Shown here one piece after another: positions 5,378 to 30,737 of a stretch of DNA of 64,000 bases. A program made the position numbers and the translations under genes. Origin of the DNA: Fervidobacterium pennivorans DSM 9078 (lineage in GTDB: Bacteria; Thermotogota; Thermotogae; Thermotogales; Fervidobacteriaceae); assembly GCF_000235405.2 (NCBI RefSeq), contig NC_017095.1, positions 1 to 64,000 on the forward strand, read 5' to 3'. Position 1 is the stretch's first letter. Every line of letters starts with the position of its first letter. A model generated the notes under the pieces. It ran no database searches, was not told where the DNA came from, and saw nothing but the letters and a program-made list of their open reading frames with translations.

Positions 5378-6967
5378 GTGGATGATTTAAGAAAAGATTC
5401 AAGACATTCTGAACTTGAAGGTCACGATAACCGTTCTGAGTACGCTGTTGAGATGATAGAGATTACCAAGAGGTTTCCTGGCGTTCTTGCAAATGACAGA
5501 GTAACGTTAAGGATTAAAAAAGGTGAAATCCACGCGATAGTTGGAGAAAACGGTGCTGGGAAAAGTACGTTGATGAACCAACTCTACGGTCTCTATCATC
5601 CAGATAGTGGCGAAATACGTATCTTCGGGCAAAAAAAGGTTTTTACAGGTCCGAGGGATGCGATAAAAGCCGGTATTGGAATGGTCCATCAGCATTTCAT
5701 GCTTGTGAATACATTGACCGTAGCTGAGAACGTAGTACTCGGTAACGAACCTGTGAAAGGTGTTAATTTTGACCTAAGAAGGGCAAGGCAAGAGGTTAAG
5801 GAATTATCCGAAAAATATGGTTTATACGTTGATGTCGATGCGAAAATCGAGGATATACCGGTCGGAATGCAACAACGTGTTGAGATAATAAAAACACTTT
5901 ACAGGGGTGCTAACATAATTATATTGGATGAGCCGACTGCGGTTTTGACTCCTCAAGAGGTTGAAGAACTGTTCGAAATTATGAGAAATCTCCAAAAAAG
6001 TGGGAAGACAATACTATTTATTTCTCACAAACTCAACGAAGTCATGGAGATTAGTGATAGGATAACAGTTATGCGTGGTGGAAGGGTAATTGCTGAGCTT
6101 ATCACGAAAGAAACGAACGAACGCGAAATAGCACGTGCAATGGTCGGTAGGGATGTTGTTTTGAAACTTGACAAAGCGCCGCATACACCAAAGGAAGTGG
6201 TATTTGAAGTCAAAGACCTTTGGGTGAAAGATAATAGGCATCTTGATGCCGTAAAAGGAGTTTCTTTCCAGGTGAGAAAGGGAGAGATAGTGGGTATTGC
6301 TGGTGTTGCAGGAAACGGGCAAACGGAATTAGTTGAGGCAATCACCGGTTTGAGAAAAGCAGAAAAAGGGCAGGTACTATTTGAAGGAATAGATGTGACA
6401 AATAAACATCCTAGGGTATTGCGAGAGATGGGGATGACGCATATAGCGGAGGACAGATTGAAGCATGCTTTAATAAAACAATTTCCTGCCTATTACAATG
6501 TAATCCTCGGTAGACATTACAAACGTCCGTTTGCGAATGGTGCATTCCTGAATCACCAAGAGATAAAGAGATACACAGCGGAATTGATGGAAGAGTTCGA
6601 CGTAAGACCGAGGATAATAGAACACTTAGGCGGTAATTTCTCTGGTGGTAACCAACAGAAGCTAGTTGTTGGAAGGGAAATAAAAGCTGGTCCAAAATTT
6701 ATGGTTGTCGCCCAACCAACAAGGGGTTTGGACGTTGGTGCAATTGAATTTATCCATAGGCAAATTCTGAGGATGAGAGAGCAAGACGTGGGTATACTTT
6801 TGATATCGATGGAATTAGAAGAGATATTCTCACTGAGCGATAGGATATTGGTTATGTACGAAGGGCAGATAATGGGAGAAGTGAGACCAGAAGAAACGAC
6901 AGTTGAGGAAGTTGGGTTGATGATGGCAGGTAAAAGACTAGAAGAAATTCGAGGTGGTAAGAGATGA
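5378..6967 (+). CDS. Nucleoside-type ABC importer, duplicated ATPase subunit
   Basis: This 529-residue protein contains two fused nucleotide-binding domains, as in RbsA and NupO, and powers uptake with the two permeases that follow. Domain 1 has Walker A GENGAGKST and Walker B IIILDEPTAVL, with a degenerate signature (PVGMQQRVEI). Domain 2 has a degenerate Walker A (GVAGNGQTE) but a good signature (FSGGNQQKL). This asymmetry is usual for the family. The start is GTG after GGAGGTGG. An N-terminal extension of about 25 charged residues precedes the first domain. The stop overlaps the next gene as ATGA. Confidence 0.93.
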   Translation: MDDLRKDSRHSELEGHDNRSEYAVEMIEITKRFPGVLANDRVTLRIKKGEIHAIVGENGAGKSTLMNQLYGLYHPDSGEIRIFGQKKVFTGPRDAIKAGIGMVHQHFMLVNTLTVAENVVLGNEPVKGVNFDLRRARQEVKELSEKYGLYVDVDAKIEDIPVGMQQRVEIIKTLYRGANIIILDEPTAVLTPQEVEELFEIMRNLQKSGKTILFISHKLNEVMEISDRITVMRGGRVIAELITKETNEREIARAMVGRDVVLKLDKAPHTPKEVVFEVKDLWVKDNRHLDAVKGVSFQVRKGEIVGIAGVAGNGQTELVEAITGLRKAEKGQVLFEGIDVTNKHPRVLREMGMTHIAEDRLKHALIKQFPAYYNVILGRHYKRPFANGAFLNHQEIKRYTAELMEEFDVRPRIIEHLGGNFSGGNQQKLVVGREIKAGPKFMVVAQPTRGLDVGAIEFIHRQILRMREQDVGILLISMELEEIFSLSDRILVMYEGQIMGEVRPEETTVEEVGLMMAGKRLEEIRGGKR

Positions 6968-8013
6968 AGAAGCCGGAAATGAAGAAGTTGTTAGAAAGTA
7001 TTGCGGTTCCTGTTCTTGCTGTATTGATTGCCTTGTTGATTTCTGGATTTATCATTCTTGCTATTGGTAAGAACCCGATAAAGGCTTACGGTGTTCTATT
7101 ACACGGTGCTTTTGGTAGTAAGCAAGCGATAATTGATACTCTTATAAAGACAACCCCTCTGATTTTAACAGGTCTGGCTGTTGGGTTTGGATTTAGAGCA
7201 GGTGTGTTCAATATAGGTGCCGAAGGTCAAATGGCAATGGGCGCTTTGATGGCTGCCACATTTGCTAGTAATTTTGGAGGATTACCACCTGCTGTAGCAA
7301 TTCCACTTACAATGTTAATTGGTATGGGTGCAGGTGCTGGATGGGCTGCTATAGCTGGATTTTTGAAAGCAAAGACCGGAGCCCACGAGGTTGTTACAAC
7401 AATAATGTTGAACTGGATAACAACTTACGTAGCTTCATTCATGGTAACAGGACCTCTCGCAACGGGCTCAGGAACACCGAAGAGTCCTGAAATTGCACAG
7501 TCAGCACAACTCCCCATTTTAATGAGAGTTGGTGCAATGGAATTGAGCGCTGGAATACTTATCTCTATAGCGGCTGCCGTATTTATGTATGTTTTTCTCA
7601 ACAAGACAACAACGGGATATGAAATAAAGGCGGTGGGTTTCAATCCGTATGCTGCGGAATACGGTGGAATAAGTGTGGCGAAAAACGTGGTGCTTGCAAT
7701 GGCAATCAGCGGTGCACTTGCGGGGCTTGCAGGTGTTACCGAGCTTATGGGTGTTCATCATAGGTTCTTGGGAGAGCTGTCTGGCGGTAAAGGTTTCGAT
7801 GGTATTAGTATTGCACTCATAGGACAAAATAATCCGATAGGTATCATCTTCGCAGCACTCTTGATAGGTGCACTGAGAACTGGCAGTAATGAGATGCAGT
7901 TCATGGGTGTTTCAAAATATATTGTCATCATCGTTCAAGGTATTGTTATCTTCTTAGTAGCGGCGGACAGAATCGTTAAGGCAATATACGCGAGAAAGAA
8001 GGTGAAAGCATGA
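6964..8013 (+). CDS. Nucleoside-type ABC importer permease 1 (NupP-like)
   Basis: A 349-residue inner-membrane permease of the BPD_transp_2 superfamily. It has about 8-10 hydrophobic segments and family motifs such as FRAGVFNIGAEGQM near residue 80 and GEL/GGKGFDGISIALIG near residue 280. It begins inside the ATPase stop codon (ATGA) and ends with the same overlap into the second permease, so the three subunits are translationally coupled. Confidence 0.92.
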   Translation: MKKPEMKKLLESIAVPVLAVLIALLISGFIILAIGKNPIKAYGVLLHGAFGSKQAIIDTLIKTTPLILTGLAVGFGFRAGVFNIGAEGQMAMGALMAATFASNFGGLPPAVAIPLTMLIGMGAGAGWAAIAGFLKAKTGAHEVVTTIMLNWITTYVASFMVTGPLATGSGTPKSPEIAQSAQLPILMRVGAMELSAGILISIAAAVFMYVFLNKTTTGYEIKAVGFNPYAAEYGGISVAKNVVLAMAISGALAGLAGVTELMGVHHRFLGELSGGKGFDGISIALIGQNNPIGIIFAALLIGALRTGSNEMQFMGVSKYIVIIVQGIVIFLVAADRIVKAIYARKKVKA

Positions 8014-10035: not shown

Positions 10036-11298
10036 TTAATTCTCGCTGAGTTCTTTAACACTCTCAAGTAATTTTTCAAAAACTTCTTTTGAAAATTTTC
10101 CTTTTTCCACGTCGGCTTCAATTATTTTCAGAACTTCTCCGAAGTCCCATGCTTCTTTATACGTTCTTTTGGATGAGAGTGCATCGAATACATCTGCGAT
10201 ACCAATAATCTTTCCGAATAAGGATATCTCTTCGCCTTTTTTCCCATAAGGGTATCCACTTCCATCGAGCCTTTCATGATGTTCTAAAGCGCCTTTGAGT
10301 ATGTCTTCGTCAACGTATTTGACTTGAGATAATATTTCTGCACCATAAACCGTGTGGTTTTTTATTATTTTGTACTCCTCATCAGTAAGTTTCCCTGGTT
10401 TCAGTAATATGCTATCAGGGATACCTATCTTCCCAACATCGTGTAATATAGCTGAGAACTCAAGCTTTTCTAATTCTTGTTGGCTAAGTCCCATTCTTTT
10501 ACCAATTTCCACAGATATCCTCGCTACGTTTTTCGAGTGTTGGTGTGTGTAATTATCACGCTTATCTATCGCGGTTGCTATTGCTAAGAGGATCTTCTTA
10601 AATGATTCAGAAAACTTTTCATATCTCCATGCGCTAAGAAGTTTTCGTCCAATCAATTTGGCGAAAAGCTCTACCGTTTCAGCATCTTCCTCGGAAAAAC
10701 CACCATCTTTGTTTAGCACCTCTATAACACCTATCTTTTCATCCTCTACCCAGATGGGTGAACCAACTATGTTTTTTGTTTTAAATTTTGCTACTTTATC
10801 GACGCCCTTAAAATGAACGGGATTTGTTTCCAAGTCGTTAAAAACAAGAGCTTTTCCTTCTAGAAAAATCTTCCCTGCGATCGATTCCATAGGAACAGGT
10901 ATACTTTCAATCTTACCACTCGCTTTCCCAACGGTCACAAGAAACCGCAGATGGTCAGCCTCGTACATAAGAATAGAAGCGGCTTCAGCGTTGATTATGG
11001 TGCATATTTCCTGCTGGATATCTTTTAAAAGCTCGTTCAACCTCAGGTTGCTGTTTAGCTTAGCTGCGATGTACACAACTTGGTCACGCAAGCTCGCAGG
11101 GTTAATCTTTACACCATGTTCAATCATCTCTGCAAGCCTTTTTAAAAAGTTTTGAGAGTAGTTGCCGAGCACATAGAATTCTATATCTTCGACAACCACT
11201 TTGTTTTTAGATACCCTTCCTACTAAACGTCCGTTGTACTTATACCCACAAAGCCAAGTTGGAGCTTCTACAAGTTTCTCTTTATTAAGATTAGACAA
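10036..11298 (-). CDS. GAF domain HD-GYP protein, predicted cyclic-di-GMP phosphodiesterase
   Basis: This 420-residue cytoplasmic signalling protein probably hydrolyses cyclic-di-GMP. A short N-terminal module (1-80) is followed by a GAF sensor domain at about 85-220. A complete HD-GYP domain occupies about 235-410. It has the HD dyad at residues 286-287 in LHDVGKIGIPD, the second histidine set in NHTVYGAEIL, HHERLDGSGYP at 340-350, and DVFDALSSKRTY. All metal ligands expected for an active enzyme are present. GGAGGC precedes the ATG. It lies 38 bp downstream of the FecR gene on the same strand and is probably the last gene of that operon. Confidence 0.9.
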   Translation of the reverse strand: MSNLNKEKLVEAPTWLCGYKYNGRLVGRVSKNKVVVEDIEFYVLGNYSQNFLKRLAEMIEHGVKINPASLRDQVVYIAAKLNSNLRLNELLKDIQQEICTIINAEAASILMYEADHLRFLVTVGKASGKIESIPVPMESIAGKIFLEGKALVFNDLETNPVHFKGVDKVAKFKTKNIVGSPIWVEDEKIGVIEVLNKDGGFSEEDAETVELFAKLIGRKLLSAWRYEKFSESFKKILLAIATAIDKRDNYTHQHSKNVARISVEIGKRMGLSQQELEKLEFSAILHDVGKIGIPDSILLKPGKLTDEEYKIIKNHTVYGAEILSQVKYVDEDILKGALEHHERLDGSGYPYGKKGEEISLFGKIIGIADVFDALSSKRTYKEAWDFGEVLKIIEADVEKGKFSKEVFEKLLESVKELSEN

Positions 11299-11336
11299 CG
11301 TTTGGCGCCTCCTTTTTGACGCTTAAAAACGATACC

Positions 11337-13505
11337 TTACCAGCTAATCTCACTACCGATATAGACACTCTGCACCCATTTTGTACCATCCCAATTGTAC
11401 ACAATACCTGCAACAAGGTTACGCTCCATAATTGGGTATGTAATTCTCAAGAACGATATAGTATCGCTGTCGAAGAACTCGCCGTTTGAAAATGGTGTTT
11501 GGTCGAAATAATATCCGTAGATAAATAGACCTGCCACAGCCCCTATCTGCGGTATTGTTATTCTAAACTCACCAAGTGCGTCCATGTCTCCACTGAAGTT
11601 ACCATAAATGTAAAATCTACCGGTAGCGATATCATGGTAGAAATTCAAACCTGCCAGGAAACCAAACGAGGTTTGAACATTATCCAGTGTTGGCAGTTCG
11701 TTTTTGGACTTTTGAATGGTGTAAATCCTGCCAAAGTGGAAGGGTCTAAAACCGTTCCAAGTTCCGTAACCACCGACGATGATATCTGCTATTCCTATCT
11801 TTCCACTCAAACCACCGAACGCACCAATACCGAACTTAGACATATCGGCTAACCATTGCGAACCAAATTCCAGACCAAAGTAGAAGTTGTTTAGTAGTGG
11901 GTATCTCAAAAATGCTGACAGTGAAAGATTTATTGGTGTATCATCAACTGTAGGTTTCGTATTTTCGTTGGTAACGTCAGTATCGTACAATGCGGCAATT
12001 CCCAAATCCATACCAAGAACTGCAGATTTCACCTCCATTTCACCTGCAAACACTGAGTCTGACTGAACAATTTCCGGCATCCAAAGTTTTGTAAGTTCGT
12101 AGGGAATATGCAAAAAGAGGGCAAAACTACCAAAGGCTATCTTGATATCAAAAGACTTAGCGTATGGTTTGAAATAATCCCTTACGGAAAAGCCCATACC
12201 TAATGAAATCGGAGGCATATTTCCATATCTCAAATAGAAATTTCCAAGATTCAAGGCAACGTGATTGATTGTTATCATGTTTATTATATCTGTGCTTGGA
12301 TTTTCAGAGGGTATACCATAGTACAAAGTTCCACCAACTTCGGTAGCGTAAGCGGTTAGTCCTATACCCAATGTGATGGGACCTATCGTAAATTCTGGAG
12401 AAATGCTGTAGACAATATATTTTTGGTTGTTTTTGATAGCTGTTTCAACACCGAGAGGTGGTATGTATGCCTTTGGTTGTGGTTCGGGTTGAGACTGAGG
12501 TTGTTGAATCTCTCCTGTTCTTGATGGCTTTTCTTCTTCCGGTTCTTCTGGAGTTTCTTCGAACAACTTTTCGATTTCTGGCATAATCTCTTTGAGAGGT
12601 TCTAAGGTAGTTGAGTCAAAGAGCTGAGAAATATCTTGGACAAGTTCAGTTCCAAGCTGGTAGATGAGTGTTTGACCTGCTGTTATCGGAAGCACAAAGT
12701 CATTTCCAAAGAAAGCAAATACCTCTCCACTCCAAACCTTTATAACCGGCTTGTCGTTGATAATTTCTACGCCAAATTCCGTTCCTCTCACACCAGCCGT
12801 GACACTACCTGCCTTAACTTCGAACGAAGAACCTGCCATCATTTTTTGAACAATGTTGTATGTTCCACCCTTTTGGATAACTATCGATACGAGAATCTTC
12901 CCTTCTTTTGATACTCTGAGTTTTTCAAAAAGAACCTGTGTGTTCTCAGTTATCTTTGTCATAGAACCGTCTGGAAATTTTACAACAACGTAAGATTTTT
13001 CCAATGTAAGAATCTCATCACCTTCTTGAATTACCATGTTTTTTGTTATTGATTCCCAAGTTGTTTTGTTAGATTTCTTTATCGCAACGCTTCCTCTGAA
13101 CGAGTCAATCTGAGCTTTCAACTGTTCTGAGAATTCACTCTCATCTTTTTCCGTTACTTTTATGGAAACTTCTTGAGTGAATATGCTCTTGTCTGTTGTC
13201 TCAGCTGTAAACGTTATTTTTATTTCACCTGCTCTCTTTGGAGCCAAATAGTTTAAGACTACTTTCCCGTTACCGGTCAGTCCTTTTGTTAATACTTCTG
13301 GCTTGTCGAATCCTCCAAGGTTCAATTTGGCTTTTAAAGTGTATTGAGCAGGTTTTCCGTCTTTGCCGGTCACTTCTACTGTAATCGGCAACTTTCCTCC
13401 GATGACAACAGTATCGCTTTGCAAATTGACTTTTAGTTCCGCGAATACCGAAATAGCAAAGAGTGTAAAAACTGCAAGAATAAGCATCCTGAAGATTTTC
13501 CTCAT
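11337..13505 (-). CDS. FecR-domain protein with a predicted C-terminal outer-membrane barrel
   Basis: This 722-residue exported protein begins with a signal peptide (1-22). A beta-sandwich-like region follows to about 120, then a FecR domain at about 133-265 (GSVAIKK, FPDGSMTKITENTQ, GTEFGVEI, WSGEVFAF). A proline- and glutamate-rich linker spans 315-350. The last 370 residues alternate aromatic and polar strands, repeat the pattern of barrel proteins and end in tryptophan, so I predict an outer-membrane beta barrel. FecR domains usually pass extracytoplasmic signals. An open frame extends 35 codons further upstream. I place the start at 13505 because that ATG has a GGGGGTG site and overlaps the upstream stop as ATGA. 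Confidence 0.85.
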   Translation of the reverse strand: MRKIFRMLILAVFTLFAISVFAELKVNLQSDTVVIGGKLPITVEVTGKDGKPAQYTLKAKLNLGGFDKPEVLTKGLTGNGKVVLNYLAPKRAGEIKITFTAETTDKSIFTQEVSIKVTEKDESEFSEQLKAQIDSFRGSVAIKKSNKTTWESITKNMVIQEGDEILTLEKSYVVVKFPDGSMTKITENTQVLFEKLRVSKEGKILVSIVIQKGGTYNIVQKMMAGSSFEVKAGSVTAGVRGTEFGVEIINDKPVIKVWSGEVFAFFGNDFVLPITAGQTLIYQLGTELVQDISQLFDSTTLEPLKEIMPEIEKLFEETPEEPEEEKPSRTGEIQQPQSQPEPQPKAYIPPLGVETAIKNNQKYIVYSISPEFTIGPITLGIGLTAYATEVGGTLYYGIPSENPSTDIINMITINHVALNLGNFYLRYGNMPPISLGMGFSVRDYFKPYAKSFDIKIAFGSFALFLHIPYELTKLWMPEIVQSDSVFAGEMEVKSAVLGMDLGIAALYDTDVTNENTKPTVDDTPINLSLSAFLRYPLLNNFYFGLEFGSQWLADMSKFGIGAFGGLSGKIGIADIIVGGYGTWNGFRPFHFGRIYTIQKSKNELPTLDNVQTSFGFLAGLNFYHDIATGRFYIYGNFSGDMDALGEFRITIPQIGAVAGLFIYGYYFDQTPFSNGEFFDSDTISFLRITYPIMERNLVAGIVYNWDGTKWVQSVYIGSEISW

Positions 13506-14140
13506 AACATCACCCCCATAAGTATCATCGTGGAAACTGTTGTTATGATGTAGCTCAGCATGTTGAATTTGGAGCCCCTTTTCTTGAACTTGAACACGGG
13601 AATCAAACAAAATAGTGCATAGATTATTAAAAACAATGGGTTAAGCAGATAAACGATAGGTGCTATCATTCGTAGTGCATATCCGATGTAGTCTCGTTGG
13701 TACTTACCATTGGATGTTATAAGGTGTACAAGTATACTTACAAAATACCCATTGAATATCATCACCGATAAGAGAACCACTAAAGTTCTTGGAAGAACAG
13801 GTTCCAAATGAGTTAACTGCGAGCTTATGAAAAGTAAAGATAACACATGTAACGATTGGTCAAAGAGATAATAATACCAAGTATTGCAAAATTTCTTTTT
13901 GCATAAGAATTTAAGTAAATCAATCAAAAAATGAATACCAGAAAGAAGACCAATCATGGTTAAACTCTTAATACTGAAATTTTTACCCACGATGAATAGA
14001 ACTTGAGAAAAAAATACTAAAACTGTGTGAAGTCCAAGAACTTTTAAGTCTTTCGACTTGTTAGTTGCTATATAACTTACTTGAAGAACGTAATCTCCAA
14101 AAAGGTGTCCCAGGAAAAGGTAAGGGAAGATAAGGTTCAT
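13502..14140 (-). CDS. DUF3307 family membrane protein
   Basis: A 212-residue integral membrane protein whose N-terminus (PYLFLGHLFGDYVLQ) is the DUF3307 signature, with six or seven hydrophobic segments. The function of the family is not known. The start has AGAGGTG and overlaps the upstream gene as ATGA. Its own stop overlaps the FecR gene in the same way. It therefore sits in the middle of a tightly coupled signalling operon, which suggests a membrane role in that pathway. Confidence 0.82.
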   Translation of the reverse strand: MNLIFPYLFLGHLFGDYVLQVSYIATNKSKDLKVLGLHTVLVFFSQVLFIVGKNFSIKSLTMIGLLSGIHFLIDLLKFLCKKKFCNTWYYYLFDQSLHVLSLLFISSQLTHLEPVLPRTLVVLLSVMIFNGYFVSILVHLITSNGKYQRDYIGYALRMIAPIVYLLNPLFLIIYALFCLIPVFKFKKRGSKFNMLSYIITTVSTMILMGVML

Positions 14141-15093
14141 TGTAATTCACCTCTGGAATCTATTACAGCTAAGTAACTATCTGGATATTTGCCTTGTAGT
14201 TTTGAGACATTCCACTTCAAAATTACAACATGTTCGGCAAAACCTATTGCTAAGGCTATTTTTGGAATTTCATACCCTTTCAATCCCTTTATACCAGAAC
14301 CATCTATAAACTCGTGATGATACAAACAAGAATCCAGAATAAAATGTGGAACATCCATTTCTTCGAGAATCTCATATCCTAAATCAACGTGTTTCAGAAA
14401 TTCCCTGTAATCTTCATTTGTGAAATCTCCGGTGAAAATCCTTACAAATAGTTCATCCCTTAAACCCACAAATCCAACATTGGCTATTCTTAGAGCAAAG
14501 TGCACCTCTTCGTGATTTAATTGTTCTATTTGTGCAATTCTCGATGCGATAGCTTCCATTCTATCTATGTCACTCTCATTTAATCGGACGCGTTTGTTCA
14601 GAGCAACGAACAATGTGTCAAGTGAACTTTTTAACAGTTGTTCTAGACGGTAGTTTATTATTATACTTTCAACAATGGAAACGAAAGAATCGTAAAATGC
14701 GAGCAAACCTAAGACTTCGTCGAACGTTAGAAAGCCGTGCAAAGTTATCGTCCCTAAATTACCGGAATTTTTGCTCACTATTGGTAATGAGGCATGATTA
14801 TTTTGAATATCCATTTGCAAGCTTGCTTCTGAATAAATAATTTTAACGTCTTTGTGTAGTTTCGATTTGAAGAAATCCTCAACTTTCTTTTTTACACTAT
14901 TTAAATCTTCCGCCTTTAACAGTTCGTGCACCATATCAAATAGTTTCTCATTTATTGGCAAACTATAATTCATCGCCAATTCATAAATCTCATCTTGAGT
15001 TGGTAAGTTGCCTGATATTTGAAATGTACCGTTGTTTTTCAGAACGAACTTAGTGTTGCTGAGTTCAATAATCAAATCATTGGAGCTTTTCAA
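14137..15093 (-). CDS. Degenerate HD-GYP protein, probably catalytically dead
   Basis: The C-terminal 140 residues align by eye with the HD-GYP protein at 10036. KHVDLGYEIL and HHEFIDGSG are kept, but the HD dyad of LHDVGKIG is replaced by IANVGFVG and the GYP triad by GIK. It therefore probably binds a ligand or partner rather than hydrolysing cyclic-di-GMP. The N-terminal half is unassigned. I prefer a TTG start at 15093, behind a GGGGGGA site. An ATG at 15108 in the same frame has no good ribosome site. An IS now ends 25 bp upstream, cutting the gene from its former operon partner, the cyclase at 16315. Confidence 0.75.
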   Translation of the reverse strand: MKSSNDLIIELSNTKFVLKNNGTFQISGNLPTQDEIYELAMNYSLPINEKLFDMVHELLKAEDLNSVKKKVEDFFKSKLHKDVKIIYSEASLQMDIQNNHASLPIVSKNSGNLGTITLHGFLTFDEVLGLLAFYDSFVSIVESIIINYRLEQLLKSSLDTLFVALNKRVRLNESDIDRMEAIASRIAQIEQLNHEEVHFALRIANVGFVGLRDELFVRIFTGDFTNEDYREFLKHVDLGYEILEEMDVPHFILDSCLYHHEFIDGSGIKGLKGYEIPKIALAIGFAEHVVILKWNVSKLQGKYPDSYLAVIDSRGELQ

Positions 15094-15109
15094 TATAATT
15101 CCCCCCATC

Positions 15110-15117: not shown

Positions 15118-16176
15118 GATAATGTTAACTAAAAGTATTGAAACTTTCCAAAAACCGCATTATCCTTATAAAGAGGGGACACCCCCCAACCAACTCTCGA
15201 CAAAGGAGGTATCCCGATATGAACAACTCAACGCTCTCTTGTCCAAAATGCGGTTCCACCAGCTTATACAAAAACGGTCATGACAAATACGGTAACCAAC
15301 AATTCCTTTGCAAACTCTGCCATCATTCTTTCAAACTCTCCCATTCTCAAAAACGCAAAAACTTCCCTTTCCCTTATCCCAAATGCACTTCTTGTGGTAA
15401 ATCTATGCAAATTTACAAAGTCCGTCGCTCTTTCGTTGTCTTCCGTTGTAGAGCTTGTCGTACCAAAGATAGAGTACCTTTTAACCTCCCCGAACCAGTC
15501 ACCCTTATTCCTGAGAAATTTAAATACTTCCGCTTCCCTATCTTTTTCGTCTTAAAGGCTTTCGTTTTGTATATGAAACACAATATGTCTTATCGCTCTC
15601 TTGCTCATTCTCTTAATATCAAAGTATCTCATGTCACCATATACAAATGGGTTATTAAATTGTGTACTTTATTCTCTGTACTTTTTCCAACATTTACCAT
15701 CGAAAATGTTTTCTCAGTTCATGCTGATGAAACTGTTCTTGTGTTCAAAGAACAAAAGTACTATGTTTGGCTATTAGTTGATCACGAAACTAACTTAATT
15801 CTTTGTTGGCATGTCTCAAAGTATCGTGATATGGGACAAGTCAAAGTATTGCTCGAGAAGTTCTTTGGTAATTCAAAACCTAGAAACATTGAACTTATTA
15901 CTGATGGACTTGGTGCATATGAAAGTGCAGTAAAGCTGTTGTTCAGAAATATCAATCACGTAGTGGTACCGCTCGGTAAAAACAATCAATGTGAATCTAA
16001 GTTTTCATTGTTGAAAGACTTTTTCCGACTCAAGCGAGGGCTGAAGAATACGAAGAACTTAGCGAAATATATTCAAGGATTTTGTGTAGTGAAGAATCTT
16101 TGGAAAACGCACAATGGCAATATCAATCGCATTCTTTCACAATTACACTCTTTCATCACTACAAGTTAACACTATC
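15118..16176 (+). mobile_element. IS1/IS6-like insertion sequence, copy 1
   Basis: A 1059-bp element present three times in the window. The ends are imperfect inverted repeats of the type GATAATGTTAACT / GATAGTGTTAACT. One transposase gene fills it, with a likely promoter TTGAAA (15138-15143), 17 bp, TATCCT (15161-15166). This copy differs from the other two by a single silent T-to-C change that I noticed near 15530. It lacks a direct target repeat, which is explained by inversion together with copy 2. Confidence 0.93.
15219..16169 (+). CDS. IS1/IS6-like transposase, copy 1
   Basis: A 316-residue DDE-type transposase. An N-terminal zinc ribbon (CPKCGS, then CKLC) and a second cysteine cluster (CTSCG, CRAC) precede a helix-turn-helix region (SYRSLAHSLNIKVSHVTIYKW). 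Catalytic candidates are D170 in HADET, D229 in ITDGLGAYES and E259 in NNQCESKF, spaced DD(29)E. This combination lies between classical IS1 and IS6 enzymes. The start at 15219 has a perfect AAAGGAGG site. An open frame 27 codons longer starts inside the promoter. Confidence 0.9.
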   Translation: MNNSTLSCPKCGSTSLYKNGHDKYGNQQFLCKLCHHSFKLSHSQKRKNFPFPYPKCTSCGKSMQIYKVRRSFVVFRCRACRTKDRVPFNLPEPVTLIPEKFKYFRFPIFFVLKAFVLYMKHNMSYRSLAHSLNIKVSHVTIYKWVIKLCTLFSVLFPTFTIENVFSVHADETVLVFKEQKYYVWLLVDHETNLILCWHVSKYRDMGQVKVLLEKFFGNSKPRNIELITDGLGAYESAVKLLFRNINHVVVPLGKNNQCESKFSLLKDFFRLKRGLKNTKNLAKYIQGFCVVKNLWKTHNGNINRILSQLHSFITTS

Positions 16177-16184
16177 ATGATTTT
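16177..16184. repeat. Right flank of IS copy 1 (half of a split target duplication)
   Basis: ATGATTTT, the exact complement of 19309-19316 at the far end of IS copy 2. Confidence 0.9.
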
Positions 16185-16244
16185 TTAAATTACTCAACGT
16201 TTTTGACGATCTCGTAGTCTAATTATTAGGGCCTTCTGCTAAAA

Positions 16245-16273
16245 ATTATACTAGATAAATTCTCTTTTTGAAA
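16245..16273 (-). promoter_or_regulatory. Candidate promoter now facing IS copy 1
   Basis: Read on the minus strand: TTTCAA, 17 bp, TATAAT. In the present order it fires into IS copy 1 and towards the degenerate HD-GYP gene. In the order before the inversion it would have faced the YjbQ gene at 19333. Confidence 0.5.
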
Positions 16274-16314
16274 CAACCAACTGACAATTTGAAGCAAAAA
16301 CAAAGGAGTGACGC

Positions 16315-18267
16315 ATGAAAAAACTACATATCCTGAACATATTACTAACGCTCTTTATGTTATGGGCAATTATGTTTAGGTTTGAAATGACAGAAGTTTT
16401 AGACCTCAAAATCTCTGATTTGTTTTACAAAATGCGTGGTGAGGTTGTCATCTCCCCTCAAGTTATCGTCGTTGGAATTGACGAGTACTCATTAAGTACT
16501 CTGGAAATCGAGGGTGATACTTGGCCCTGGAACCGTGATGTTTACGGAAATTTACTACAAAAAGTCTTCGAAGATGGTGCGAAAGTTGTAGCTTTTGATG
16601 TCTCGTTTACCGAACCAATGGACGAAGAAACAGATGCTTACTTTGCCAGCATGCTTCTTATGTACGGAAACGTTGTTCTGGGAACTTATCTGATAAATGA
16701 CAAAAAGACATACGAACTATTTAATCAAAAGCTTAGGGAAAAGATAGAACAAAATCGTACTTATCTTGACTACACATACAAAATGAAAAACTTTCGAGAA
16801 CTTTCGTTGATGAAACCTTTTAAGGTTTACAAAATACGGCCTGTTTACGAACCATTCGCAGTAGCAGCTTACAGTGCAACTTATGAAATAGGTGCCTTAG
16901 ACCCAGACGGAACCGTCAGGAGAATGCCATTACTTATCATCGAAGAATGGGCAAACGAAAATGGAATCTCTTCCGGTATTTTACCGCACATGAACGTTAT
17001 AGCTTGCGCTCTTTACCTTGGGGCAAAACCCGAAGAGATGTTACTCGATTTTTCAAAACGCTTTGTGGAATTGAATGGTAAAGAAGTTCCGTTTGACAAT
17101 TCAGGATACATGCATCTGTGGTATTATGGTAAATCATCCAACGTGTTCAAAGAAGTTCCGTTTTACGATGTGATATCAGGAAATTTTGAAAAAGGAATTT
17201 TTAAAGACAAGGTTGTACTTGTTGGATACACAGCAACTGCAAAGGGCCTTTATGATTTAAGGATAACCCCTTTTTCGAATGAAGAAGCAGGGGTTTTTAT
17301 CCATGCAACAGCGATAGAAAACATGCTGAGAGGTGATTTCTTAAAACTTTTGTCCCCTTTTTATAACAGTCTATTGGTAGTATTTTTAATGACGCTGCTT
17401 GGAATCCTGTCGAATTTTAAGAACAGGTATGTTAACGTAATAATTCCTACCATACCGGCTTTGTTTGTAGTAATATCATCCATCCTTTTTTTAAAGCATG
17501 TCTACGTATCGACCTTCTACCCAGTATTTGGATACATTGTTGTTGGTTCTGTCAAGCTGGTAGGTGATTTCCTATCTGAGAGTGCTGAAAAAAGAAGGAT
17601 GAAGGAATTTCTTTACAGGTATGTTCCAGATAGAGTTGCACAAGAATTGGTGAGTAAAGGTGAACTGAAACTCGGCGGGGAAACTAGAAACGTTGTGGTT
17701 TTGTTCTCAGACATAAAGGGATTTACTAGTATTTCCGAAAAAATGAAACCGGAAGAAGTGGTTGCGTTTTTGAATGTTTACTTTACAAGAATGAGCGAGA
17801 TTATCCGTTACAAGTACGATGGAACAATCGATAAATTCATAGGTGATGCAATAATGGCTATATTTGGAGCACCGGTTTCTTACGAGGATGATATCGAACG
17901 TGCACTCTCTTGTGCTTTGGATATGAGAGTTGCTTTGAAGGAACTTAACATAGAGTACGGATTCAACCTTGATAGTGGGATTGGTATACACTATGGACCA
18001 GCAATCGTGGGAAATATTGGTGCACCCTTTAGAATGGATTATACGTGTATCGGAGACACAGTAAATACCGCATCAAGAATTGAGCATCTCACACGAGAGG
18101 TTGATGCGGAAATTATAGTCTCAGAAGCAGTTGTAACTCGCACTGACAAGTTTTTATTTGAATACCTCGGTGAATTTGCCGTGAAGGGAAAAAGCGAAAA
18201 GCTGAAGCTGTACAAACTTGTCGGTAAAAAACTTGAAGAAGACAAAGAAGATAGTGTTAACTTGTAG
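16315..18267 (+). CDS. CHASE2-domain class III adenylate cyclase
   Basis: A 650-residue membrane enzyme making cyclic nucleotide in response to an outside signal. After an N-terminal membrane anchor (5-21) comes a CHASE2 sensor (about 30-340). Three membrane segments follow at 348-418, then a class III cyclase domain (455-640). Metal ligands are D466 (FSDIKGFT) and D511 (FIGDAIMAIFG). Transition-state residues are N584 and R588 (VNTASR). K507 and T577 form the Lys-Thr pair typical of bacterial enzymes that use ATP, so cAMP is the likely product. AAAGGAGTGACGC precedes the ATG. The last five codons and the stop lie inside IS copy 2. The native end was lost to the insertion. Confidence 0.92.
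   Translation: MKKLHILNILLTLFMLWAIMFRFEMTEVLDLKISDLFYKMRGEVVISPQVIVVGIDEYSLSTLEIEGDTWPWNRDVYGNLLQKVFEDGAKVVAFDVSFTEPMDEETDAYFASMLLMYGNVVLGTYLINDKKTYELFNQKLREKIEQNRTYLDYTYKMKNFRELSLMKPFKVYKIRPVYEPFAVAAYSATYEIGALDPDGTVRRMPLLIIEEWANENGISSGILPHMNVIACALYLGAKPEEMLLDFSKRFVELNGKEVPFDNSGYMHLWYYGKSSNVFKEVPFYDVISGNFEKGIFKDKVVLVGYTATAKGLYDLRITPFSNEEAGVFIHATAIENMLRGDFLKLLSPFYNSLLVVFLMTLLGILSNFKNRYVNVIIPTIPALFVVISSILFLKHVYVSTFYPVFGYIVVGSVKLVGDFLSESAEKRRMKEFLYRYVPDRVAQELVSKGELKLGGETRNVVVLFSDIKGFTSISEKMKPEEVVAFLNVYFTRMSEIIRYKYDGTIDKFIGDAIMAIFGAPVSYEDDIERALSCALDMRVALKELNIEYGFNLDSGIGIHYGPAIVGNIGAPFRMDYTCIGDTVNTASRIEHLTREVDAEIIVSEAVVTRTDKFLFEYLGEFAVKGKSEKLKLYKLVGKKLEEDKEDSVNL
18242..18249. repeat. Left flank of IS copy 2 (half of a split target duplication)
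   Basis: ACAAAGAA, the exact complement of 15110-15117. It lies inside the cyclase gene and ends exactly on a codon boundary. Confidence 0.9.
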
Positions 18268-19308
18268 TGATGAAAGAGTGTAATTGTGAAAGAATGCGAT
18301 TGATATTGCCATTGTGCGTTTTCCAAAGATTCTTCACTACACAAAATCCTTGAATATATTTCGCTAAGTTCTTCGTATTCTTCAGCCCTCGCTTGAGTCG
18401 GAAAAAGTCTTTCAACAATGAAAACTTAGATTCACATTGATTGTTTTTACCGAGCGGTACCACTACGTGATTGATATTTCTGAACAACAGCTTTACTGCA
18501 CTTTCATATGCACCAAGTCCATCAGTAATAAGTTCAATGTTTCTAGGTTTTGAATTACCAAAGAACTTCTCGAGCAATACTTTGACTTGTCCCATATCAC
18601 GATACTTTGAGACATGCCAACAAAGAATTAAGTTAGTTTCGTGATCAACTAATAGCCAAACATAGTACTTTTGTTCTTTGAACACAAGAACAGTTTCATC
18701 AGCATGAACTGAGAAAACATTTTCGATGGTAAATGTTGGAAAAAGTACAGAGAATAAAGTACACAATTTAATAACCCATTTGTATATGGTGACATGAGAT
18801 ACTTTGATATTAAGAGAATGAGCAAGAGAGCGATAAGACATATTGTGTTTCATATACAAAACAAAAGCCTTTAAGACGAAAAAGATAGGGAAGCGGAAAT
18901 ATTTAAATTTCTCAGGAATAAGGGTGACTGGTTCGGGGAGGTTAAAAGGTACTCTATCTTTGGTACGACAAGCTCTACAACGGAAGACAACGAAAGAGCG
19001 ACGGACTTTGTAAATTTGCATAGATTTACCACAAGAAGTGCATTTGGGATAAGGGAAAGGGAAGTTTTTGCGTTTTTGAGAATGGGAGAGTTTGAAAGAA
19101 TGATGGCAGAGTTTGCAAAGGAATTGTTGGTTACCGTATTTGTCATGACCGTTTTTGTATAAGCTGGTGGAACCGCATTTTGGACAAGAGAGCGTTGAGT
19201 TGTTCATATCGGGATACCTCCTTTGTCGAGAGTTGGTTGGGGGGTGTCCCCTCTTTATAAGGATAATGCGGTTTTTGGAAAGTTTCAATACTTTTAGTTA
19301 ACATTATC
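18250..19308 (-). mobile_element. IS1/IS6-like insertion sequence, copy 2
   Basis: The same 1059-bp element as copy 1, in inverted orientation 2.1 kb away. It begins with GATAGTGTTAACT and ends with AGTTAACATTATC. The two copies form a pair of long inverted repeats able to recombine. Confidence 0.93.
18257..19207 (-). CDS. IS1/IS6-like transposase, copy 2
   Basis: The same 316-residue transposase as at 15219, with identical protein sequence, intact zinc ribbon and DD(29)E residues. The start at 19207 again follows AAAGGAGG. The intact frame in all three copies points to recent activity. Confidence 0.9.
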   Translation of the reverse strand: MNNSTLSCPKCGSTSLYKNGHDKYGNQQFLCKLCHHSFKLSHSQKRKNFPFPYPKCTSCGKSMQIYKVRRSFVVFRCRACRTKDRVPFNLPEPVTLIPEKFKYFRFPIFFVLKAFVLYMKHNMSYRSLAHSLNIKVSHVTIYKWVIKLCTLFSVLFPTFTIENVFSVHADETVLVFKEQKYYVWLLVDHETNLILCWHVSKYRDMGQVKVLLEKFFGNSKPRNIELITDGLGAYESAVKLLFRNINHVVVPLGKNNQCESKFSLLKDFFRLKRGLKNTKNLAKYIQGFCVVKNLWKTHNGNINRILSQLHSFITTS

Positions 19309-29678: not shown

Positions 29679-30737
29679 GATAGTGTTAACTTGTAGTGAT
29701 GAAAGAGTGTAATTGTGAAAGAATGCGATTGATATTGCCATTGTGCGTTTTCCAAAGATTCTTCACTACACAAAATCCTTGAATATATTTCGCTAAGTTC
29801 TTCGTATTCTTCAGCCCTCGCTTGAGTCGGAAAAAGTCTTTCAACAATGAAAACTTAGATTCACATTGATTGTTTTTACCGAGCGGTACCACTACGTGAT
29901 TGATATTTCTGAACAACAGCTTTACTGCACTTTCATATGCACCAAGTCCATCAGTAATAAGTTCAATGTTTCTAGGTTTTGAATTACCAAAGAACTTCTC
30001 GAGCAATACTTTGACTTGTCCCATATCACGATACTTTGAGACATGCCAACAAAGAATTAAGTTAGTTTCGTGATCAACTAATAGCCAAACATAGTACTTT
30101 TGTTCTTTGAACACAAGAACAGTTTCATCAGCATGAACTGAGAAAACATTTTCGATGGTAAATGTTGGAAAAAGTACAGAGAATAAAGTACACAATTTAA
30201 TAACCCATTTGTATATGGTGACATGAGATACTTTGATATTAAGAGAATGAGCAAGAGAGCGATAAGACATATTGTGTTTCATATACAAAACAAAAGCCTT
30301 TAAGACGAAAAAGATAGGGAAGCGGAAATATTTAAATTTCTCAGGAATAAGGGTGACTGGTTCGGGGAGGTTAAAAGGTACTCTATCTTTGGTACGACAA
30401 GCTCTACAACGGAAGACAACGAAAGAGCGACGGACTTTGTAAATTTGCATAGATTTACCACAAGAAGTGCATTTGGGATAAGGGAAAGGGAAGTTTTTGC
30501 GTTTTTGAGAATGGGAGAGTTTGAAAGAATGATGGCAGAGTTTGCAAAGGAATTGTTGGTTACCGTATTTGTCATGACCGTTTTTGTATAAGCTGGTGGA
30601 ACCGCATTTTGGACAAGAGAGCGTTGAGTTGTTCATATCGGGATACCTCCTTTGTCGAGAGTTGGTTGGGGGGTGTCCCCTCTTTATAAGGATAATGCGG
30701 TTTTTGGAAAGTTTCAATACTTTTAGTTAACATTATC
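29679..30737 (-). mobile_element. IS1/IS6-like insertion sequence, copy 3
   Basis: The same 1059-bp element, with a perfect 7-bp direct repeat ACGTGAC on both sides, showing simple insertion. It inserted between the CIRCE/promoter region and the groES ribosome site. It has the same orientation as copy 2, 11.4 kb apart, so recombination between the two would delete that stretch including tRNA-Ala. Confidence 0.95.
29686..30636 (-). CDS. IS1/IS6-like transposase, copy 3
   Basis: An intact 316-residue transposase with the same protein sequence as the other two copies. It is transcribed away from groES, so it cannot drive groESL. A message from the stranded groESL promoter would cross it in antisense. 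Confidence 0.9.
   Translation of the reverse strand: MNNSTLSCPKCGSTSLYKNGHDKYGNQQFLCKLCHHSFKLSHSQKRKNFPFPYPKCTSCGKSMQIYKVRRSFVVFRCRACRTKDRVPFNLPEPVTLIPEKFKYFRFPIFFVLKAFVLYMKHNMSYRSLAHSLNIKVSHVTIYKWVIKLCTLFSVLFPTFTIENVFSVHADETVLVFKEQKYYVWLLVDHETNLILCWHVSKYRDMGQVKVLLEKFFGNSKPRNIELITDGLGAYESAVKLLFRNINHVVVPLGKNNQCESKFSLLKDFFRLKRGLKNTKNLAKYIQGFCVVKNLWKTHNGNINRILSQLHSFITTS

What the first reader, a model, noticed from the sequence alone, without database searches (positions are those of the whole stretch)
11337..13505. FecR domain fused through a proline-rich linker to a probable outer-membrane barrel
FecR proteins are usually inner-membrane anti-sigma factors or small periplasmic proteins. Here the domain is followed by a Pro/Glu linker and about 370 residues with barrel-like strands ending in Trp. 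This would tether FecR to the outer sheath (toga).
Basis: inference. Interest (0 to 1): 0.55.

Follow-up and report, generated by a model that had tools for sequence, protein, structure and literature searches.

The report
Outer-membrane FecR receptor beside adenylate cyclase
A heat-loving bacterium carries a predicted outer-membrane barrel with a FecR domain hanging into the space below it, encoded next to an inner-membrane enzyme that probably makes cyclic AMP, so it may carry outside signals across the cell envelope.

Summary
The barrel is a prediction: pLDDT 81 and only barrel matches listed, but low TM-scores.

What matters lies around it. In Thermotogota it is the fourth gene of a tight operon: CHASE2 cyclase, degenerate HD-GYP, DUF3307 membrane protein, Ig-FecR-barrel, GAF-HD-GYP. 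CHASE2 lies 2.4-2.9 kb away in 31 of 33 fusion loci, fragments included. The genome has no TonB receptor and no second FecR hit, so a Fec-type anti-sigma role is unlikely.

Best model: an outer-membrane receptor or tether that controls the inner-membrane cyclase through FecR-CHASE2 contact. The precedent is NsrA-CyaK of Sinorhizobium meliloti. FecR lies beside CHASE2 cyclases in 13 of 15 plasmid neighbourhoods viewed. Against it: one Thermotogota genome has the first three genes without the fusion next to them, and the pairing is weak in Spirochaetota. Contact, ligand, product and toga attachment are untested. In this strain an IS pair has inverted the cyclase out of the operon. New variant of a known kind.

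The parts
11337..13505 (-). Ig-FecR-linker-barrel gene (722 aa plus stop), subject of the finding
13440..13505 (-). signal peptide, residues 1-22, ending ...SVFA (read by eye, no predictor run)
   Evidence: similar N-termini in relatives
13146..13439 (-). Ig-like / macroglobulin-like domain, residues 23-120
   Evidence: weak Pfam BatD/Big_8, below cut-off; VIA match to complement C5 and TEP1 chains, Z about 11
12720..13019 (-). FecR domain PF04773, residues 163-262 (structural domain about 130-275)
   Evidence: VIA match to PupR 6ovk Z 13.8, rmsd 2.3 A, 121 aligned, and 4m0n Z 13.1
12456..12641 (-). Pro/Glu-rich linker, residues 289-350 (284-351 below pLDDT 50)
11340..12455 (-). C-terminal predicted outer-membrane beta-barrel, residues 351-722, 20 strands in the model, terminal Trp
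10036..11298 (-). GAF-HD-GYP protein with HDxGK and HHExxDGSGYP motifs; last gene of the operon
13502..14140 (-). DUF3307 membrane protein; overlaps the FecR gene by 4 nt
14137..15108 (-). degenerate HD-GYP protein (no HDxGK); overlaps the DUF3307 gene by 4 nt
16315..18267 (+). CHASE2 class III nucleotide cyclase, first gene of the operon in relatives, inverted here
15138..16169 (+). IS transposase ORF (DDE_Tnp_IS240), copy 1, at the cyclase / degenerate HD-GYP junction
18257..19288 (-). IS copy 2, inverted relative to copy 1; target duplications swapped with copy 1

Best explanation
It is an outer-membrane-anchored receptor or envelope sensor for an inner-membrane CHASE2 class III cyclase. 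The C-terminal barrel sits in the outer membrane, and its loops or lumen meet the outside. The flexible Pro/Glu linker carries the Ig and FecR domains into the periplasm. FecR touches the periplasmic CHASE2 domain of the cyclase and changes its activity when the barrel is occupied or when the distance between the membranes changes. The cyclase makes a cyclic nucleotide (residues of the adenylate type, by recalled motifs). The GAF-HD-GYP protein of the same operon ends the signal or converts it into a cyclic-dinucleotide change. The DUF3307 protein and the degenerate HD-GYP protein are membrane or scaffold partners. Shown: sequence architecture, operon conservation, co-occurrence. Predicted: barrel fold and topology. 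Inferred: FecR-CHASE2 contact, direction of signalling, product, ligand, and the roles of the other genes.
For: FecR and Ig folds. Barrel. The genome has no second FecR hit and no TonB-dependent barrel hit, so FecR has no evident Fec-type partner. Fusion or a fragment of it in 33 of 103 Thermotogota genomes; CHASE2 on the same contig 2375-2852 bp away in 31 of 33, the other 2 on separate contigs. FecR in 31 and CHASE2 in 37 of 103, all 31 shared, Fisher p 1e-20, not corrected for kinship. Order cyclase / degenerate HD / DUF3307 / fusion in 16 of 16 neighbourhoods that hold the fusion with its upstream side, HD-GYP next in 15 of 16 (one contig end), genes overlapping or nearly so. A sister genus lost the operon and keeps only cyclase remnants in place (G076). 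Outside the phylum: a FecR-TPR gene with a C-terminal Phe directly precedes cyaK on S. meliloti pSymB. NsrA is the outer-membrane receptor upstream of the S. meliloti CHASE2 cyclases (passages of PMC7529298, PMC13001267). Campylobacterota CHASE2 cyclases mostly cluster with a FecR-domain outer membrane protein (passage of PMC9239204). FecR is the adjacent gene in 13 of 15 plasmid CHASE2-cyclase neighbourhoods viewed. In Paracoccus a DUF3307 gene follows FecR and the cyclase. A CRP-like protein is present in this genome (called CRP-like by eye).
Against: No contact, localisation, nucleotide or ligand was measured. Foldseek TM-scores of the barrel model are low (TMq 0.21-0.38 over the 50 listed rows, rmsd about 10 A or more), so closure and strand count are uncertain. 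In Thermotogota genome G004 the cyclase, degenerate HD and DUF3307 genes are present, but the next 766 bp to the contig end show no match to the fusion; G003 has the same three genes with only 362 bp left; neither genome matched the fusion. So the cyclase may work without it. In 20 Spirochaetota genomes FecR lies within 6 kb of CHASE2 at only 3 places, about 1 expected, and one of the 3 genomes (G107) I had put in knowing it was positive. Two Azospirillum cyclases have an unrecognised protein instead of FecR. In this strain the cyclase is inverted out of the operon, and in G070 its ORF is split. A FecR gene near cyaD1, smc02177, was not needed for plant-signal perception (passage of PMC5498481).
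Confidence: 0.62

Rival explanations
1. A mechanical spacer: the barrel anchors the Ig-FecR arm to the outer membrane (toga) and the arm binds peptidoglycan or the inner membrane to set periplasmic distance; the cyclase only shares the operon.
For: Toga envelopes have known outer-membrane anchor and porin proteins OmpA1/OmpB (abstract and passages of PMC3387000). FecR is joined to the peptidoglycan-binding LysM domain in Burkholderia (passages of PMC5192318). The Ig domain plus linker is a plausible strut. The three upstream genes occur without the fusion beside them in G004.
Against: That LysM-FecR gene also sits next to a CHASE2 protein. Thermotoga maritima, a toga bacterium among the 14 control genomes, rings for neither FecR nor CHASE2. 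Where contigs allow a check, the fusion always has a CHASE2 gene beside it (31 of 31).
Confidence: 0.16
2. A nutrient porin whose transport is regulated or reported by FecR; signalling is secondary.
For: The barrel also exists alone with a signal peptide in the same genome (37% identity) and barrel-region relatives occur in 10 genomes without the fusion. Structural matches include Occ porins and AlgE.
Against: Does not explain the fixed signalling operon.
Confidence: 0.1
3. The C-terminal half is a soluble periplasmic beta protein, not a membrane barrel.
For: Low Foldseek TM-scores; strand alternation is as strong in the soluble N-terminal domains; the terminal aromatic residue is not kept in all relatives.
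Against: 20 strands, pLDDT 81, only barrel titles among the 50 listed VIA rows; aromatic- and glycine-rich, no Cys.
Confidence: 0.08
4. A Fec-type anti-sigma regulator.
For: FecR domain; the genome has matches to Sigma70_r4_2, three over the cut-off.
Against: Signal peptide instead of a cytoplasmic anti-sigma domain; no sigma gene among the conserved neighbours; no TonB receptor hit in the genome.
Confidence: 0.03

Closest known systems
NsrA-CyaK of Sinorhizobium meliloti
   Same: FecR domain near the N-terminus and a C-terminal barrel in one secreted protein, encoded together with a CHASE2 cyclase (barrel and receptor role from passages of PMC7529298 and PMC13001267).
   Different: The pSymB protein is 1190 aa with TPR repeats between FecR and barrel and no Ig hit; no HD-GYP or DUF3307 genes in its listed surroundings. 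tblastn with this protein listed four other plasmid records and no Sinorhizobium. That the pSymB gene is nsrA rests on its place beside cyaK and on recall.
Campylobacterota CHASE2 cyclase clusters
   Same: CHASE2 adenylate cyclase + FecR-domain outer membrane protein + phosphodiesterase in one cluster (passage of PMC9239204).
   Different: Their cluster has a cAMP phosphodiesterase and a TPR protein; here HD-GYP proteins and DUF3307. Sequences not compared.
Burkholderia BiofilmReg operon (LysM-FecR + CHASE2 histidine kinase)
   Same: FecR protein next to a CHASE2 receptor (passages of PMC5192318).
   Different: FecR is joined to LysM (cell wall) rather than a barrel; the output is a kinase.
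FecR/PupR anti-sigma regulators
   Same: FecR-domain fold (6ovk, 4m0n).
   Different: Those are inner-membrane anti-sigma proteins that meet a TonB receptor (general knowledge); here FecR is itself attached to a predicted barrel.

Membership tests
FecR domain (PF04773) | Pfam score above gathering cut-off and FecR fold | tested here: met
   47.9 vs 24 bits; Z 13.8 to PupR 6ovk
Outer-membrane beta-barrel protein | signal peptide and barrel-compatible C-terminal domain | tested here: inconclusive
   Model and VIA matches favour it, TM-scores low, signal peptide by eye only
Outer-membrane beta-barrel protein | physical location in the outer membrane / toga | not testable with these tools
   needs fractionation or proteomics
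Fec-type sigma/anti-sigma signalling | cytoplasmic anti-sigma N-terminal domain | tested here: not met
   N-terminus is a signal peptide (by eye) plus Ig-like domain; no anti-sigma Pfam hit
Fec-type sigma/anti-sigma signalling | TonB-dependent receptor partner | tested here: not met
   PF00593: 0 matches in the whole genome
NsrA-like receptor of CHASE2 cyclases | FecR domain plus C-terminal barrel in one exported protein | tested here: inconclusive
   FecR met; barrel by prediction
NsrA-like receptor of CHASE2 cyclases | gene beside a CHASE2 cyclase gene | tested here: met
   31 of 33 loci in Thermotogota within 2.9 kb; inverted but near here
NsrA-like receptor of CHASE2 cyclases | TPR repeats between FecR and barrel, as in NsrA | tested here: not met
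   no TPR in P0001; present in the pSymB protein. So it may work like NsrA but is not filed as an orthologue
NsrA-like receptor of CHASE2 cyclases | required for signal-dependent cAMP production | not testable with these tools
   needs mutants and cAMP assay
Class III adenylate cyclase with CHASE2 (operon partner) | catalytic domain with metal, Lys and Asn/Arg motifs | tested here: met
   CHASE2 E 4e-48, Guanylate_cyc E 2.7e-30; FSDIKGFT, DKFIGD, DYTCIGDTVNTASR in this genome (reading as adenylate type is recalled knowledge, activity not tested)

The most novel reading that the evidence does not exclude
CHASE2, whose signal is described as unknown, is a general docking domain for FecR-type periplasmic proteins rather than a small-molecule sensor. 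Bacteria attach FecR to different envelope layers: an outer-membrane barrel in Thermotogota and in NsrA-type proteins, the cell wall through LysM, or a free periplasmic form. In Thermotogota this couples the toga to cyclic AMP and, through the GAF-HD-GYP protein, to cyclic dinucleotides.
Probability: 0.33. Interest if true: 0.75.

Novelty: new variant of a known kind. Interest (0 to 1): 0.55.

Why it matters
What CHASE2 domains sense is described as unknown (passage of PMC5192318), and how toga bacteria signal across their loose outer envelope is, as far as I know, open. A five-gene operon conserved across part of Thermotogota, with a predicted outer-membrane FecR protein beside the CHASE2 cyclase, gives a probably heat-stable protein pair in which FecR-CHASE2 contact can be tested directly. 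It would also explain similar gene pairs in Alphaproteobacteria, Campylobacterota and Burkholderia.

Tried and rejected
Plus-strand reading of the coordinates: stops throughout. PDB sequence search: nothing useful, best E 0.048. Homology of the Spirochaetota Ig + C-terminal-Phe protein to this barrel: profile comparison with the barrel alignment gave 0.3% probability; against the full set only the signal peptide and Ig start align, 51%. So that is an analogous arrangement, not a shown homologue. General FecR-CHASE2 clustering in Spirochaetota: weak in the 20-genome sample (3 places, about 1 expected by my hand estimate from 147 FecR rows in about 66 Mb). It looks strong only among the best-scoring CHASE2 rows: ranks 1, 2, 3, 5 and 7 have a FecR row 2.2-2.5 kb away, rank 6 (G129) has none in its complete list, and rank 4 was not resolved because one search is a capped list. 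My first reading that CHASE2 genes without the fusion in G003 and G004 only reflect contig ends was checked and dropped for G004; confidence was lowered from 0.65 to 0.62 and the novel case from 0.35 to 0.33 for that. First genome-contig scan with the single protein: no relative. Pfam found nothing in the barrel-only paralogue (protein 8). Plasmid tblastn with the whole protein matched only around the FecR domain. Papers: listings of searches for Thermotoga + FecR, CHASE2 + Thermotog, DUF3307, FecR domain + cyclase terms and a six-term search showed no title or abstract start about this operon in Thermotogota; this covers only the held open-access library.

Full report
What is there. The gene at 11337-13505 is on the minus strand and encodes 722 aa. 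In order: signal peptide (by eye), Ig-like domain, FecR domain (PF04773, residues 163-262, E 1.9e-12), disordered Pro/Glu linker (289-350), C-terminal beta-rich half (351-722). The full-length AlphaFold2 model on nine sequences has mean pLDDT 67.7 and pTM 0.46. Its FecR part matches the PupR cell-surface signalling domain (6ovk, Z 13.8, rmsd 2.3 A, 121 aligned) and another FecR protein (4m0n, Z 13.1). Its Ig part matches complement C5 and TEP1 chains, Z about 11. The C-terminal half modelled alone reaches pLDDT 81.0, pTM 0.72, with 20 strands. All 50 listed VIA rows are, by title, outer-membrane or mitochondrial barrel proteins or complexes, best Z 13.3, rmsd mostly 5-9 A. Against this, Foldseek TM-scores are only 0.21-0.38 over the 50 listed rows, with 9 of 641 matches at E 0.001 or better. 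The barrel is a supported prediction, not a fact.

How widespread. In 103 Thermotogota genomes, 43 have a match. 33 carry the fusion or a fragment of it. Six of these are not intact in the data: two cut by contig ends (G087, G098), one in two frames (G055), one in a shortened frame (G041), one fragment of 86 residues (G073), one with an in-frame TGA (G101). The other 10 have only matches to the barrel region. The barrel also occurs alone with its own signal peptide in this genome, 390 aa, 37% identical. So the fusion joins a stand-alone family to an Ig-FecR arm. FecR domains are found in 31 of 103 genomes, and in this genome once only. Nine genomes also have short FecR relatives of 296-364 aa frames.

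The operon. Around the fusion the same genes recur: CHASE2 cyclase, a degenerate HD-GYP protein, a DUF3307 membrane protein, the fusion, a GAF-HD-GYP protein. I counted 16 neighbourhoods (15, L079). The first four are in that order in 16 of 16, with the cyclase inverted in the window and split into two frames in G070; the fifth follows in 15 of 16, the exception being a contig end. Left out of that count because contigs are too short: L073, L074, L075, L077, L078. Gaps are mostly overlaps or a few bases, measured on longest ORFs. The HDxGK pair is present in 14 of 14 GAF-HD-GYP proteins and absent in 15 of 15 of the other HD proteins. Cyclase motifs: Lys in 15 of 15 catalytic halves, the metal motif by my pattern in 13 of 15, the YTxxGDxVNxAxR pattern in 10 of 15; unmatched ones may only differ from my pattern. 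CHASE2 is in 37 of 103 genomes; all 31 FecR genomes are among them (Fisher p 1e-20, not corrected for kinship).

The six CHASE2 genomes without a FecR hit. G053 has the fusion with FecR below threshold. G073 is 60% complete and has a fusion fragment. G102 has the first genes up to a contig end. G076 keeps cyclase remnants after loss of the rest. G003 and G004 have cyclase, degenerate HD and DUF3307, but no match to the fusion anywhere. In G004 the next 766 bp hold no match; in G003 only 362 bp are left. So the first three genes can apparently stand without the fusion beside them, which counts against an obligate partnership.

Not a Fec system. There is no TonB-dependent receptor hit in the genome, no sigma gene among the conserved neighbours, and no anti-sigma N-terminus. 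There are three PF00027 matches, one in a 231-aa CRP-like protein that could read cAMP.

The wider pattern. On S. meliloti pSymB a 1190-aa FecR-domain gene directly precedes cyaK; Pfam gives FecR 66-160 and TPR repeats, and it ends in Phe. Papers (passages only) state that NsrA is the outer-membrane receptor required for signalling through CyaK and CyaD1/D2, with a barrel portion at 600-1200 (PMC7529298; also PMC13001267), that most Campylobacterota CHASE2 cyclases lie in a cluster with a FecR-domain outer membrane protein (PMC9239204), and that Burkholderia pairs LysM-FecR with a CHASE2 kinase (PMC5192318). The 2018 NsrA paper is not held; that nsrA lies directly upstream of cyaK and that its domains suggested transmembrane signalling is recall. 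I viewed 15 of the 40 listed plasmid hits, chosen among rows with gene tables (652 records matched). FecR is the adjacent gene in 13 of 15, one of them seen only by Pfam and two on the opposite strand. The two Azospirillum loci lack it; two of the 15 are from one species, S. meliloti. Paracoccus also has DUF3307 next to the cyclase. In Spirochaetota the best CHASE2 matches have FecR and an Ig + C-terminal-Phe protein as separate neighbouring genes. The pairing is weak in a 20-genome sample that included one genome known beforehand to be positive, and their Ig protein is not shown to be homologous to this barrel.

Mechanism. I commit to an outer-membrane-anchored receptor that regulates a CHASE2 cyclase through FecR (0.62). 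Shown: architecture, conservation, operon, loss of the operon in one sister genus. Predicted: barrel. Inferred: contact, product, ligand, and the role of HD-GYP and DUF3307.

Strain peculiarity. In this strain the cyclase is inverted between two inverted IS copies whose 8-bp target duplications are swapped: copy 1 left equals copy 2 right, and copy 1 right equals copy 2 left (read from the flanks printed). That is the mark of inversion by recombination between the copies.

Noticed in passing
window 15118-19308: Two inverted IS copies flank the CHASE2 cyclase, which is inverted relative to the relatives examined; swapped 8-bp target duplications point to recombination between the copies. The cyclase tail is altered and the rest of the operon has probably lost its original leader, so the strain may be uncoupled or phase-variable (inference).
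   Followed up: yes
window 29686-30717: Third copy of the same IS with its own 7-bp target duplication (read by eye).
   Followed up: partly
L055 (G070) 11116-13009: The cyclase gene of a related Fervidobacterium is split into two overlapping frames (331 and 328 aa), while the FecR-barrel frame is open; a sequencing error is not excluded.
   Followed up: no
L076 (G076) 6452-7169: A sister genus has lost the operon and keeps only cyclase remnants between the same flanking genes.
   Followed up: partly
L073 (G004) 1-766: Cyclase, degenerate HD and DUF3307 genes without the FecR-barrel gene next to them.
   Followed up: partly
L002 1423-2595 (genome 366 kb): Stand-alone barrel paralogue (390 aa, signal peptide by eye, no Pfam match), perhaps an undescribed Thermotogota porin-like family.
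   Followed up: partly
L060 13828-14838 and L061 2885-3964: Short Ig-FecR paralogues without a barrel lie about 6 kb from the operon in two genomes.
   Followed up: no
L092, L107: Azospirillum CHASE2 cyclases have an unrecognised small protein upstream and an FhaC/ShlB-type protein downstream instead of FecR.
   Followed up: no
paper PMC4439547 (passage): Magnetospirillum mtxA, for a protein with signal peptide, is followed by a CHASE2 adenylate cyclase gene; the paper does not mention FecR.
   Followed up: no
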